Of a DNA stretch of 64,000 nucleotides, positions 15,979 through 44,094 are shown piece after piece (position 1 is the first letter of the stretch; each line of letters opens with the position of its first letter). The stretch is from contig JAMYGW020000011.1 of assembly GCA_025617375.2 (NCBI GenBank), positions 124,001-188,000 on the forward strand, in the 5' to 3' direction. This DNA comes from Acarospora socialis (taxonomy: Eukaryota > Ascomycota > Lecanoromycetes > Acarosporales > Acarosporaceae). The notes under the pieces are model-generated. The model saw only the letters and a list, made by a program, of their open reading frames with translations. It was not told the origin of the DNA and did not search any database. Both the position numbers and the translations under genes were made by a program.

Positions 15979-17536
15979 TCATAGTTTTGTAAAAGCAGTA
16001 GGCACACTGCCGCTTATGTCGACCAAGGTGCTCTTGTTCCGAACCCACGCTTCGATACCACGTCTGCCGTTCTCAACCCCAACACCACTCTGCTTCCACC
16101 CCCCTACACTCATCTCAGCAGGGCTTTCACCCCATGTGTTGATCCAAGTGATGCCTGCTTCGAGTCGAGATATGACCTTATGTGCTAGGTTTAGGTCCTT
16201 GGTGAAGACTCCGGCAGCGAGACCGAGCGGAGTGGCGTTTGCCCGTTTTACCGCTTCACCGACAGTAGAGTACGTGAGGATACTGAGGACGGGACCGAAA
16301 ATTTCCTCCCGGATGATCTTCATAGAATCTTTGCAGTCTGTGAATATTGTAGGTTTCACCCAATAGCCGTTCTCCAATCCCTTAGCCGTCGCGGGTTTCT
16401 CGGGACCGCCGAACAGGAGCTTCGCGCCATCAACTTCAATGCCATGTTTGATGAAACTGAGAACCTTGTCATAATGCACTTTGGAAACCAAAGGACCAAA
16501 GTTTGTGTTCGGGTTCATCAGGTCTCCAGTGCGGACATATACTATCTTTTCCAGCAGCCGTTTCTCGAATGCATTCTTCATTCCTCCATAGACGAATACT
16601 CGTGTGCCGTTGGTACAAACTTGTCCAGTACTGAAGAAGTTGGCCATCATTGCACCATCCACAGCGTTCTCGAGGTCCGCGTCTGGCAAGATAATCACAG
16701 GACTTTTACCCCCGAGCTCCATGGTTACGTACTTCATATTCCCTGCCGCCGAGCTTGCAACCTTCCTTCCGGTCGACACTTGACCAGTAAAGGAAACCTT
16801 TGCAATCGAAGGATGAGAGGTCAAGTAGGCCCCAACGTCACCTGCCCCATTGACGATATTGAAGACGCCTGGAGGTACACCAGCCTCTGTGTATATCTCG
16901 GCAAGAATCTGCCCATGGAGTGGCGTGAACTCGCTAGGTTTGTATACCATTGTATTACCGGCAGCAAGACATGGTGCAGATTTCCAAAGAGCTCTGTCGA
17001 AAACCACATCTAAGCAAAGTTCTGCTGGAACCGCCGTGAGCATATACTTACATTTGTAAGGGATAGTTCCAGGCACCGATGCCCGCACAAACACCTAAAG
17101 CTTCCTTCTTCGTGTACACCCAAGCATCCTCCCTTAATTGCGTCGTTTCACCATTAAGACCTCCTCCACCGACCAGGTTTGCGTAGTACTCGAGAACATC
17201 AGCCCCAGTTATGACATCGACCGTGCTTGTTTCCGAGAAAGGTTTTCCTGTATCCTGTGTCTCAACCTTCGCTATCTGGTCATTCCTCTCTCGGAGGAGC
17301 TGCACCGCTTTCAGGAGTATTCGCGATCGAGCAATGGGTGGCGTTGTTGACCATGACAGGAAGGCTAGCTCTGCAGACGCTATTGCACAGTCGATATCTG
17401 CGTGCGAAGCTGTATGGATATCGGCCAGAAGGCTTGCGTTTGAAGGGTCAATAGTTTGAAAGGTGTGCTGAGAACTGGCATCCTGGATCCTGCCACCATA
17501 GTAAAGACGCCTAGGAGCGTAAATTGGGTATGACAT
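15979..17536 (-). CDS. Betaine-aldehyde dehydrogenase
   Basis: Two exons (17536-17052, 16993-15979) separated by a 58-bp intron (GTAAGT...GACAG) join to 500 codons. Splicing gives GAWNYPLQIALWKSAPCLAA, the conserved NAD-binding-fold entry of ALDH9-type enzymes. Catalytic features are VTMELGGKSP (general-base Glu), FFSTGQVCTNGTRV (nucleophile Cys), EEIFGPVLS and a C-terminal WGESPAEMSVGGWKQSGVG. Enzymes of this family oxidise betaine aldehyde to glycine betaine with NAD(P)+. The assignment is strengthened by the choline oxidase gene at 42259, whose 5' end faces this gene across the transposon block. Without that block the two would be a head-to-head pair. The C-terminus (AFTKL) resembles neither a mitochondrial nor a strong peroxisomal signal. 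The gene appears intact. Confidence 0.92.
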
Positions 17537-17660
17537 TGTGACCGAAGAACCTAAGTAAGGCCAGAACCGTCGGGGTTTCTATTGAGAGTTTGAGTTGGTA
17601 TTTACATGTATTTTCGTACTAGTTCGTGTTGAAAGGTAGGTAAGGTACTCCGTAGAAAAG
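17537..17660. promoter_or_regulatory. Left remnant of the BADH/choline oxidase divergent promoter
   Basis: This 124-bp stretch separates the aldehyde dehydrogenase start from the transposon duplication. It has normal base composition with CpG present, and carries GGTAGGTAAGGTACTCCGTAG near 17635-17655, words shared with other promoters here. Together with 41622-42258 it would form one intergenic region of about 760 bp between the two glycine-betaine genes. Confidence 0.6.
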
Positions 17661-17666
17661 GTAATG
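17661..17666. repeat. Left target-site duplication of element D (GTAATG)
   Basis: GTAATG abuts the left inverted repeat and is repeated directly after the right inverted repeat at 41616-41621. Confidence 0.65.
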
Positions 17667-18184
17667 TACGGTGGACAATAATGAGGTTACCAACACATCA
17701 AATTTTTTTCAAATTTTCACAAAGTGTTAATGAATATTCATCATTAACAACATGTAGTCATAGATTGTAGTAGAGAAATCATGATCTATAAGTAGATAAT
17801 CAACATTTTCATCATCATATGAACAAACTCATCAACTACAACAATGATCATCTTCATCTCAGTCATCAATGATATAACACAAGCACAGAAAGACAAAGTA
17901 AATACTTTTTAATATAAAGACTGATTTGAGAAATTGATCATACAAAGATATATGATAATGAATTTCAATTCAATGATGTTCAGACATAGATTCTGAAGAA
18001 ATGAGAAGATAAAGTGAAAATTAAAATATAACTGAAAAAGAATCACATCATGATCAGCATGCTGCAGTGAACTTTATATATTGAAGCAATTATCATACAG
18101 TTTCAGTTCATATGATCTACAGCAATATACAACATTATACATTACTGATATTTTTTTAGTGAGAAAGAGAATGAAAAGAAATGT
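17667..18184 (+). repeat. Left terminal inverted repeat of element D
   Basis: Pairs with 41141-41615. The first 50 bp or so match apart from transitions. The left arm then has about 45 extra bases (17724-17770) that include a perfect 9-bp-arm hairpin at 17725-17749 (TGTTAATGA / TCATTAACA). Homology resumes at AGAGAAAT and continues through CTACAGCAATATA and TTTTTTAGTGAGAAAGAGA before fading near 18184. Confidence 0.85.
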
Positions 18185-41615: not shown

Positions 41616-41621
41616 GTAATG
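41616..41621. repeat. Right target-site duplication of element D (GTAATG)
   Basis: Identical to 17661-17666. Confidence 0.65.
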
Positions 41622-42258
41622 CTTATGATTTTAAGTAGATTAAGGATCTATCTTATGTCATGACTGTAACCCTAGAATCTTTCATCATTTTTTGTTCCTT
41701 CTTCATACAAGCAAACATCAGGAAAAAGACAGTACAAAAAGGAACATCTAAGACTTCTTTCTTCCAACACTTTGTAGAACTGTATTATTGTAGTTGGGGT
41801 ACGGAGCTACCTGAGCTGTCATCAACCGCCTCAGCCCAGCCTTAGGACATCTTACCTGTTTCCTGCCTAGCAGTTAACTACAGTTAAGCGAATGCGATCA
41901 GACGGCATAAGCTTACTTGCTAGGGAGGAAGATCTATTGAGATAGCGGGATGGGTGATTGATAGAGTGCGTTGTACATCGATGTCAAACCATGTGCGTGT
42001 ACAGTCTGACAGCACCGGCGTTTTCGATGGTGTGCAGCAGAGGAGGTGGGAGAGGGAAGGGTACCTAGAGTCCGAGAACTTTTTTCCCGCTTTGCTACAC
42101 CATAACGCCGGCCGTCTTGCCAAGATAACGAGACTGGTATGACCGCCCGTAGATCTTCCCCACATAAGTAGTGGGGATCTGCATACTCCCCTACAGGTGC
42201 ATTTTCCTTGTCCTGAGCCCAGGATCTCAACGTCCCTTGTCAACCTTCTCCATCCAAC
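41622..42258. promoter_or_regulatory. Choline oxidase upstream region (right part of split divergent promoter)
   Basis: This 637-bp region lies between element D and the choline oxidase ATG. The first ~175 bp are AT-rich and lack CpG; normal composition returns at about 41797 (GGGGTACGGAGCTACC). The AT-rich part may be an older repeat remnant or limited spread of mutation from D. I see no clear TATA box or operator. Confidence 0.5.
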
Positions 42259-44094
42259 ATGACGACCACTCAACTTCCAACCTCTGAAGTCGACGAGTTC
42301 GATTACCTCATTGTGGGTGGAGGAACAGCAGGATGTGTCATAGCCAGCAGGTTGTCCGAATACCTACCGCAGAAGAGGGTTCTCCTCATCGAAGCTGGTC
42401 CTAGCGATTACATGAATGATAAAGTCTTGAATCTGAAAGATTGGCTGAATCTCCTTGGTTCGGAGCTTGATTATGATTACGGCACGACCGATCAGCCCAA
42501 TGGTTGGTAGTCCACATTTCCCTCGGATTCCCAGCGCATGCCCAACGCGACACTGCCCACACGCAGCACCCTCGGCGTAGATGAACCCAGAGTGCCCTGC
42601 CCTCCCTGTATTGCATATTGCACAGAAAGGAGTGTTGAGATCTACCACCGTGCAAGAAGGACCGCTGAGTCCGATGACGGTGAGCTTCGTTAACGAGTAA
42701 TACAAATAGGAAACTCCCACATCCGGCACTCTCGTGCTAAGGTCCTCGGCGGTTGCTCATCACACAACACGTTGATATCCTTCCGGCCGTTCGAGTACGA
42801 CTGCAAGGTTTGGGAGAGTCTTGGTTGCCGCGGCTGGAGCTTCCAGACTTTTATGCGCGTGCTCGATAACCTACGCAACACTGTCCAACCCGTACATGAG
42901 AGACACCGGAACCAACTCTGCAAGGACTGGATCACGTCTTGCTCCACAGGTCTGGAGATCCCCGTTATCCACGACTTCAACGACGAGATCCGAAGGACGG
43001 GAGGTCTGAGGCCGAGCGTCGGCTTCTTCTCCGTGTCATACAACCCTGACGATGGGAGACGAAGTAGCGCAAGTGTCGCCTATATTCATCCCATCCTGAG
43101 AGGCGAAGAGAGCAGACCAAACCTCACCGTCCTCACAGATGCTTGGGTCAGCCAGATAAACGTCGAGGACGACAAAGTGGCAGGGGTGAGCTTGACGCTG
43201 CAGAGCGGTGACAAACTGACACTCAAGGCCAAGAACGAGACGATCCTCTGCGCTGGCGCAGTAGACACGCCACGATTGATGCTACTCTCGGGCCTTGGGC
43301 CAAAGCAGCAGCTGGAGGACCTTGGTATTCCCGTGATGAAGAACATCCCCGGGGTGGGGGAGAATCTCCTCGACCACCCGGAAAGCATCATCATCTGGGA
43401 GCTGAATAAGCCTGTTCCCCCGAATCAGACTACCATGGACTCCGACGCTGGAATCTTCCTACGCCGCGAGATTCCCGGTGCACATGGCGTGGATGGTGAT
43501 GTTGCGGATATTATGATGCACTGCTATCAGATCCCTTTCTGCCTGAACACCGCCAGACTGGGATACGACACGCCGATCGATGCGTTTTGCATGACCCCTA
43601 ACATACCTCGGCCGAGATCGAAAGGTAGGATCTACCTCACTTCCTCAAATCCGCAGGACAAACCGGCCCTCGACTTTCGCTATTTTACAGATCCAGAGGG
43701 TTACGATGCTGCGACCATTGTGGCTGGTTTGAAGGCCGCACGTCGGGTCGCGATGGAGGAGCCTTTCAAGGCCTGGATCAAGCGGGAAGTTGCACCGGGG
43801 CCGAATGTCAACACTGACGAGGAACTATCAGAGTATGGCCGCCGGGTAGCTCATACTGTATATCATCCAGCAGGCACAACCAAGATGGGGAATCCTGGCA
43901 ATGATCCTCTAGCAGTAGTCGACAGCAGTCTAAGGGTTGTTGGCTTGAAAGGCGTAAGAATAGCGGATGCAGGCATTTTTCCGGCCATGCCGAGTATCAA
44001 CCCTATGTTGACCGTCTTAGCGATTGGTGAGAGGGCAGCAGAGATGATCGCCGAGGATGCAGGGTGGAGAGGAAATGAGAAAGCAAAGTTATAA
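42259..44094 (+). CDS. Choline oxidase-like GMC oxidoreductase
   Basis: Two exons (42259-42502, 42710-44094) join to 543 codons, close to the ~546 residues of known choline oxidases. The 207-bp intron is long for this window. Its removal gives TTDQPNGNSHIRHSRAKVLG, then GGCSSHNTLISFRPFEYD, the conserved flavin-attachment region of the family. The N-terminus holds the FAD Rossmann motif YLIVGGGTAGCVIASRLSE. The C-terminal part has VAHTVYHPAGTTKMG (catalytic His) and PSINPMLTVLAIGERAAEMI (Asn-Pro catalytic pair). Choline oxidase makes glycine betaine from choline in two steps with O2 and H2O2 release; the aldehyde intermediate is also the substrate of the dehydrogenase at 15979-17536. The ATG at 42259 is directly followed by the FAD motif. 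No damage is seen. Confidence 0.92.

What the first reader, a model, noticed from the sequence alone, without database searches (positions are those of the whole stretch)
15979..44094. A 24-kb transposon nest splits a head-to-head choline oxidase / betaine-aldehyde dehydrogenase pair
The two enzymes of choline-to-glycine-betaine conversion lie with their 5' ends facing each other, separated only by element D and its passengers. Removing D with one GTAATG would leave about 760 bp between the starts, a typical divergent promoter. Both enzymes remain open across their full family length. This raises the question of whether co-regulation by choline or osmotic stress survives 24 kb of probably silenced DNA.
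Basis: partly seen in the sequence, partly recalled or inferred. Interest (0 to 1): 0.75.

Follow-up and report, generated by a model that had tools for sequence, protein, structure and literature searches.

The report
Transposon nest splitting a choline-enzyme pair
In a fungal chromosome, a jumping gene that was later hit by three further jumping genes and heavily mutated separates two neighbouring betaine-making genes by about 25,000 bases; the event is ordinary in kind but is a clean natural case for asking what happens to paired genes when the region between them is split.

Summary
A betaine-aldehyde dehydrogenase gene (BADH, start 17536, minus) and a choline oxidase gene (codA, start 42259, plus) face each other across one 23,949-bp insertion, D (17667-41615), with ~500-bp inverted ends and a perfect 6-bp duplication GTAATG. 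Without D, 767 bp would separate the starts. D carries two ~6.2-kb Gypsy-type elements (A, C); a third, B, lies inside A. D's duplication length and TACGG end fit the IS3EU superfamily; no transposase was recognised. All four are hypermutated, mostly by transitions, with CpG and CpC nearly erased, a context reported for Coccidioides; the host was not identified. Additions: (1) in A. fumigatus badA and codA have consecutive locus numbers in a set with N-acetylglucosamine (GlcNAc) genes, and GlcNAc-type genes flank the pair here; (2) the cut is lopsided: BADH keeps 130 bp of old upstream DNA, codA 637 bp; (3) CpG is missing for 180 bp beyond D on the codA side, not on the BADH side. Altered co-regulation is inference; expression was not testable. 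New member of a known kind.

The parts
15979..17536 (-). Betaine-aldehyde dehydrogenase gene (BADH), 499 aa, one 58-bp intron (17051-16994)
17537..17666 (.). Native DNA left on the BADH side, including the left GTAATG; CpG present
17661..17666 (.). Left target-site duplication GTAATG of D
17667..41615 (.). Element D: DNA transposon with ~500-bp terminal inverted repeats and an IS3EU-like left end; about 5.5 kb without its passengers
17667..18184 (+). Left terminal inverted repeat of D, starts TACGGTGG
18524..30777 (-). Element A: Gypsy-type LTR element inserted in D (duplication TCTAG/TTTAG), itself interrupted by B; related to B by sequence, domains not scanned on A itself
22061..28130 (-). 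Element B: Ty3/Gypsy chromovirus inside A (duplication TAAGT/TAAGT), the least mutated copy
31752..37945 (-). Element C: Gypsy-type LTR element inserted in D (duplication AACTG/AGCTG), same family as A by sequence
41141..41615 (-). Right terminal inverted repeat of D
41616..41621 (.). Right target-site duplication GTAATG of D
41622..41801 (.). CpG-free flank on the codA side (leaked hypermutation, inferred)
   Evidence: 0 of 3950 overlapping 180-bp host windows lack CpG, of which only 30 have GC below 0.42
41622..42258 (.). Native upstream DNA left to choline oxidase (637 bp)
42259..44094 (+). Choline oxidase gene (codA), 542 aa, one intron 42503-42709 with unusual donor GTTGGT
9966..11665 (-). 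Hexokinase (two open frames), GlcNAc-cluster-type neighbour
13084..14742 (-). MFS/UNC-93-type transporter, GlcNAc-transporter-like by comparison with AFUA_8G04110; the hit is on 14029-14742 only, the 13084-13521 and 13437-14066 frames gave no Pfam hit and are joined to it by inference
45949..48489 (+). GH3 + GNAT protein, NGS1-like (label recalled)
50410..51939 (+). NDT80/PhoG transcription factor, RON1/REP1-like (label from search listing)

Best explanation
An IS3EU-like DNA transposon (D) inserted once into the ~760-bp region between two divergently transcribed genes, BADH and choline oxidase, making a 6-bp duplication. Gypsy-type elements A and C then inserted into D, and B later into A. 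A repeat-directed C-to-T hypermutation process (RIP-like, preferring CpG, then CpC) destroyed all four. The genes stayed open, but the cut was lopsided: BADH keeps only 130 bp of original upstream DNA, while choline oxidase keeps 637 bp. The most likely consequence is that BADH lost any shared control elements, while choline oxidase control survives apart from the 180 bp next to D, where CpG is missing. This would be tolerable because choline oxidase can also oxidise hydrated betaine aldehyde to betaine. Shown: insertion structure, nesting, mutation pattern, open genes, linkage in A. fumigatus. Inferred: ancestral shared promoter, loss of co-regulation, silencing.
For: 6/6 GTAATG plus long inverted ends. 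Duplication length and left terminus fit IS3EU as described in passages of PMC12730594 and PMC10045372. Nesting with 5-bp duplications of A, B, C. Gypsy chromovirus domains in B. Transitions outnumber transversions in all eight comparisons made: A 5' part against C 537 to 20, A 3' part against C 442 to 105, A against B 452 to 26, B against C 801 to 55, LTR pairs 48 to 0 (A), 29 to 3 (B), 55 to 3 (C), D ends 82 to 24. CpG 1 in D; CpC+GpG 0.6-1.1 per kb in D, A and C, 26.5 in B, 130 in host. badA and codA consecutive in A. fumigatus, with badA's 5' end on the side of the higher-numbered genes. Choline oxidase able to take the second step in A. fumigatus: PMC6563132 passage.
Against: No empty site from a sister genome and no transcript data were available. 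codA orientation in A. fumigatus was not seen. No transposase was found in 12 translated D stretches (the 17667-18523 part was not scanned), so the superfamily rests on the ends and duplication length. The right terminus reads ...CTGTA, not CCRTA. The GATA motifs on the codA side (4) are near chance level, and none of seven motif types scanned occurs on the BADH side. If the host is Coccidioides, a review reports choline oxidase protein as more abundant in spherules than mycelia, which speaks against silencing of that enzyme, though not necessarily from this gene.
Confidence: 0.8

Rival explanations
1. D is a Tc1/mariner-type element with a TA duplication (ends CGGTGG/CAGTGA), and the outer GTAATG match is a coincidence.
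For: The bases next to GTAATG are TA on both sides and the inner end resembles Tc1 ends (resemblance recalled; sequence).
Against: Needs a 1 in 4,096 coincidence at the exact offset. Rust-fungus IS3EU ends themselves begin TAYGG and make 6-bp duplications.
Confidence: 0.12
2. The two genes were never a functional head-to-head pair with a shared promoter; D landed in an ordinary gap and the split has no regulatory effect.
For: No shared motif was found in the 767 bp. Choline and betaine enzymes could be regulated apart. codA orientation in A. fumigatus was not seen.
Against: Consecutive linkage of the same two genes in A. fumigatus, both listed as up-regulated in blood there; badA's 5' end faces the codA side.
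Confidence: 0.3
3. BADH is a decaying gene: cut from its promoter and on its way to loss, with choline oxidase doing both steps.
For: BADH has the lowest GC3 (0.516) and lowest CpG o/e (0.85) of 7 genes or gene parts measured; only 130 bp of native upstream DNA.
Against: Full length, 0 internal stops, the four motifs looked for are present, good GTAAGT...CAG intron. Seven genes are too few for the GC3 point to carry weight.
Confidence: 0.2

Closest known systems
IS3EU DNA transposons (TET/JBP-carrying fungal families in PMC12730594; superfamily in PMC10045372)
   Same: 6-bp target duplication, long inverted ends, TACGG start matching TAYGG; right end explained as CCACCGTA changed by two C-to-T steps
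   Different: No recognisable transposase; ~500-bp inverted ends; heavily mutated; interrupted by three Gypsy-type elements
RIP-like CpG/CpC hypermutation of Coccidioides repeats (PMC9409882)
   Same: C-to-T type changes, CpG and CpC as the favoured targets, AT-rich Gypsy-containing block between ordinary genes
   Different: Host not identified here; two intensities within one nest (B less mutated)
A. fumigatus gene set AFUA_8G04050-04130 with GlcNAc and betaine genes
   Same: PhoG/NDT80-type gene, N-acetylglucosaminidase-type gene, badA, codA and a DUF895/UNC-93-type transporter lie near each other in both
   Different: Gene order differs, GlcNAc-6-P deacetylase and deaminase were not found in the frames scanned here, a hexokinase and an F-box gene are present, and a 24-kb nest splits the set

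Membership tests
IS3EU superfamily | 6-bp target-site duplication | tested here: met
   GTAATG/GTAATG
IS3EU superfamily | TA..TA termini, in rust-fungus families TAYGG..CCRTA | tested here: inconclusive
   Left TACGG met; right ...CACTGTA is TA-ended but not CCRTA, though two C-to-T changes at CpC/CpG would explain it
IS3EU superfamily | Terminal inverted repeats longer than 30 bp | tested here: met
   475-519 columns
IS3EU superfamily | IS3EU DDD/E transposase | tested here: inconclusive
   0 Pfam hits at E up to 1 in 12 translated D stretches with X at stops (3, 9); 17667-18523 not scanned; D is too mutated to exclude one
Ty3/Gypsy chromovirus (A, B, C) | LTR pair with short duplication; RT, RNase H, integrase, chromodomain | tested here: met
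   LTRs and duplications of all three, (5/5 for B, 4/5 for A and C); domains tested on B only, (integrase zinc domain below Pfam's cut-off, no catalytic integrase hit); A and C are related to B
RIP-like hypermutation | C-to-T/G-to-A transitions confined to repeats, context-biased | tested here: met
   the 180-bp CpG-free flank is the one departure from 'confined'; occurrence in the sexual phase and gene dependence not testable here
Choline oxidase | GMC family, closest to choline oxidase among GMC enzymes | tested here: met
   (378-384 bits to four choline oxidase sequences, 233 or less to the other 29 of 33 listed); motifs; NCBIfam choline dehydrogenase models matched below cut-off with one exon given; activity not testable
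Betaine aldehyde dehydrogenase | Closest to BADH within the ALDH superfamily | tested here: met
   best 60 of 186 shown: eight BADH sequences at 591-595 bits, then 474 (BADH), 469-470 (4-trimethylaminobutyraldehyde dehydrogenase), 453 (BADH), then 347 or less; NCBIfam PRK13252 best (below its whole-protein cut-off, one exon given)

The most novel reading that the evidence does not exclude
The insertion has rewired the pathway: BADH is now driven from D's end or is uncoupled, choline oxidase alone makes betaine on demand, and the heterochromatin-prone nest divides a GlcNAc/choline cluster into a transporter-kinase-BADH half and a choline oxidase-sensor-regulator half with separate regulation.
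Probability: 0.15. Interest if true: 0.6.

Novelty: new member of a known kind. Interest (0 to 1): 0.36.

Why it matters
It is a clean natural experiment: one well-bounded insertion, open genes on both sides, a measurable and unequal loss of native upstream DNA, and an apparent one-sided spill of hypermutation. It would let one ask with public genomes and transcriptomes whether divergently paired pathway genes need the region between them, and how far repeat-directed mutation spills into promoters. It also points to an IS3EU-like element in a fungus that is probably neither a rust nor a truffle; the passages I read name those groups for TET/JBP-carrying IS3EU families with described ends and do not cover others.

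Tried and rejected
Tc1/mariner reading of D: kept as a rival only. Maverick/Polinton (6-bp duplications, long inverted ends by recall): considered because of D's 24-kb size, rejected because about 18.5 kb of D is three Gypsy-type elements and the termini are TAC..GTA (Polinton AG..TC ends are recalled). Neurospora-style CpA RIP: rejected as the main context, CpA is over-represented in D (1.56 observed/expected), although differences at CpA between copies are common too. Starship reading (GTAA resembles TTAC reversed): considered from memory and dropped because of the long inverted ends; not tested by any search.

Searches that led nowhere: whole genome not held; Lambou 2013 and Neafsey 2010 not held; viral contigs gave no choline oxidase relative and no copy of the D end; Rfam none; three Coccidioides expression papers hold none of the terms choline, betaine, aldehyde dehydrogenase in their main text; the Blastomyces paper holds neither CpG nor CpC; the Rhizoctonia paper reports CpG-biased hypermutation and does not discuss Coccidioides context in the passages seen. 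A bidirectional-promoter paper search gave nothing on this gene pair among the 12 of 81 papers listed. An A. nidulans paper mentions AtfA control at codA; no CRE-like site was found in the native 767 bp. PMC4950302, PMC5063960 and PMC12584764 were seen only as search listings.
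Full report
What is there. The left gene runs 17536-15979 on the minus strand: 499 aa, one 58-bp intron with donor GTAAGT. Its closest solved relatives are betaine aldehyde dehydrogenases: eight sequences at 591-595 bits. A further BADH (474), 4-trimethylaminobutyraldehyde dehydrogenases (469-470) and one more BADH (453) come next, and the rest of the 60 shown of 186 are at 347 bits or less. The right gene runs 42259-44094 on the plus strand: 542 aa with an intron 42503-42709, placed by the uninterrupted match (ours QPNGNS, theirs QENGNS) to choline oxidase 2JBV. 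Its donor GTTGGT is unusual and splicing is unproven. Both models have no internal stop, and the motifs looked for are present.

The insertion. Between them lies 23,949 bp (17667-41615) bounded by GTAATG on both sides and ending in inverted repeats of about 500 bp. Without D and one GTAATG the start codons would be 767 bp apart. The window holds no N.

The nest. Self-comparison and boundary reading give three LTR elements. A, 18524-30777, has flanks TCTAG/TTTAG. B, 22061-28130, lies inside A with flanks TAAGT/TAAGT. C, 31752-37945, has flanks AACTG/AGCTG. The single mismatches in A and C are transitions, as expected of hypermutated DNA. B shows gag-side hits (DUF4939 and a zinc knuckle, both below Pfam's cut-off) and then reverse transcriptase, RNase H, integrase zinc domain (below cut-off), Tf2-type SH3 and chromodomain, in that order, on the minus strand, so it is a Ty3/Gypsy chromovirus. 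A and C were not scanned for domains; they are related to B by sequence. A and C are 84% identical over 3,538 columns of the 5' part (537 transitions, 20 transversions) but 79% over 2,580 columns of the 3' part with 442 transitions, 105 transversions and 141 gapped columns, so they are not simple sister copies throughout. Order of events: D, then A and C in unknown order, then B after A. LTR-to-LTR transversions are 0 of 355 (A), 3 of 329 (B) and 3 of 380 (C) columns; I give no dates, because hypermutation makes LTR identity useless as a clock.

What D is. Its own DNA adds up to about 5.5 kb (5,481 bp counted). TET/JBP-carrying IS3EU elements of rust fungi are described as having 6-bp duplications, inverted ends over 30 bp and termini TAYGG..CCRTA (PMC12730594 passages), and the superfamily as TA..TA with usually 6-bp duplications (PMC10045372 passages). 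D starts TACGGTGG. Its other end reads, inverted, TACAGTGA, which differs by two changes that are C-to-T in CpG and CpC context on the other strand. No transposase was found in 12 translated D stretches with X at stops (the 17667-18523 part was not scanned), so membership is by ends and duplication length only.

Hypermutation. D plus passengers hold 1 CpG in 23,949 bp; the rest of the window has 64 per kb. CpC+GpG is 1.1, 1.1 and 0.6 per kb in D, A and C, 26.5 in B and 130 in the host. CpA is not depleted. Reading B against C, a C kept in B is T in C in 81 of 104 cases before C, 281 of 770 before A and 179 of 614 before T. Read the other way, a C kept in C is T in B in 149 of 642 cases before A and 109 of 563 before T, with a single case before C. 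So CpG (none left to measure) and CpC are hit hardest, and CpA and CpT are also hit to a lesser degree. A review states that Coccidioides repeats show repeat-induced mutation especially at CpG and CpC (PMC9409882 passage), and its elements have GC of 28-39% (PMC5872316 passages). This makes a Coccidioides or related host plausible; I did not identify the host.

Edges. The left border is sharp: the last CpG is at 17651, within 16 bp of D. On the right no CpG occurs until 41802. None of 3,950 overlapping 180-bp windows in the host part lacks CpG, but only 30 of them have GC below 0.42, while this stretch has 0.33. CpC and GpG are still present there (4 and 6), so the state resembles the milder one of B. 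An alternative is that these 180 bp are an AT-rich native stretch or an old relic.

Is the pair ancestral? In A. fumigatus badA is AFUA_8G04080 and codA AFUA_8G04090, both listed as up-regulated in blood (PMC4551469 passages). badA lies at 885376-886980 on the minus strand and nagA at 891135-892484 (PMC3289889 passages), so badA's 5' end faces the codA side; codA's own strand was not given. The two belong to a seven-gene set (AFUA_8G04070-04130) that includes three N-acetylglucosamine-utilisation genes. It is also present on chromosome 1 of Af293, and that second copy is at least partly present in 24 of 194 accessions (PMC9692504 passages and section 18). Next to it are 04060, named with the chitinase/N-acetylglucosaminidase genes (PMC2556354 passage), and 04050, annotated PhoG. 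The window has an NDT80/PhoG gene, a GH3+GNAT protein, a UNC-93-type transporter and a hexokinase around the pair, with an F-box gene in between. That UNC-93 and DUF895 are the same family is recalled. GlcNAc-6-P deacetylase and deaminase were not found in the 28 of 38 open frames of 150 aa or more that were scanned, nor in two shorter ones. The labels NGS1 and RON1 come from recall and from search listings. So the nest appears to split a wider cluster, not only a pair.

How it likely works. BADH keeps 130 bp of native upstream DNA, choline oxidase 637 bp, of which the 457 bp nearest the gene contain CpG. If the old gap was a shared promoter, BADH lost most of it. A scan for seven motif types (stress, CRE in two forms, CCAAT, Ndt80, GATA, TATA) found one STRE-like site and four GATA sites on the codA side and none on the BADH side. 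By my own estimate about two GATA sites are expected by chance, so this proves nothing. Loss of BADH control may be tolerated because in A. fumigatus choline oxidase can take the hydrated aldehyde to betaine (PMC6563132 passage). In C. immitis genes within 1 kb of Gypsy or hAT elements are on average poorly expressed, less so in C. posadasii, and cause and effect are not separated there (PMC5872316 passages). [quoted passage not shown] Whether either gene here is silenced is unknown.

Against my reading. No sister-genome empty site, no transcript data, no codA strand in A. fumigatus, no transposase, a 3' part of A and C with many transversions. BADH's GC3 of 0.516 and CpG o/e of 0.85, the lowest of seven genes or gene parts, could mean mild decay or nothing.

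Verdict. The regulatory claim remains open. It is a good, ordinary example of nested transposons with RIP-like mutation, with some value as a natural experiment.

Noticed in passing
window 9966-14742 and 45949-51939: Hexokinase, UNC-93-type transporter, GH3+GNAT protein and NDT80/PhoG regulator surround the choline pair: an N-acetylglucosamine-type neighbourhood as in A. fumigatus, without deacetylase and deaminase in the frames scanned.
   Followed up: partly
window 17667-41615: Hypermutation leaves CpA common but nearly erases CpG and CpC; element B (22061-28130) is CpG-free yet keeps 24 to 44 times more CpC/GpG per kb than A, C or D, so two intensities or episodes are recorded in one nest.
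   Followed up: partly
window 41622-41801: 180 bp without CpG just outside D on the choline oxidase side only; possible one-sided leakage of hypermutation into native DNA.
   Followed up: yes
window 42503-42709: Choline oxidase intron has an unusual donor (GTTGGT) and is 207 bp long; splicing should be checked with transcript reads.
   Followed up: no
window 44083-44094: Choline oxidase ends in AKL, which resembles a peroxisomal targeting signal (motif recalled).
   Followed up: no
window 6806-7891: A KamA/lysine 2,3-aminomutase-like radical SAM gene, a mainly bacterial family by recall, lies near the hexokinase.
   Followed up: no
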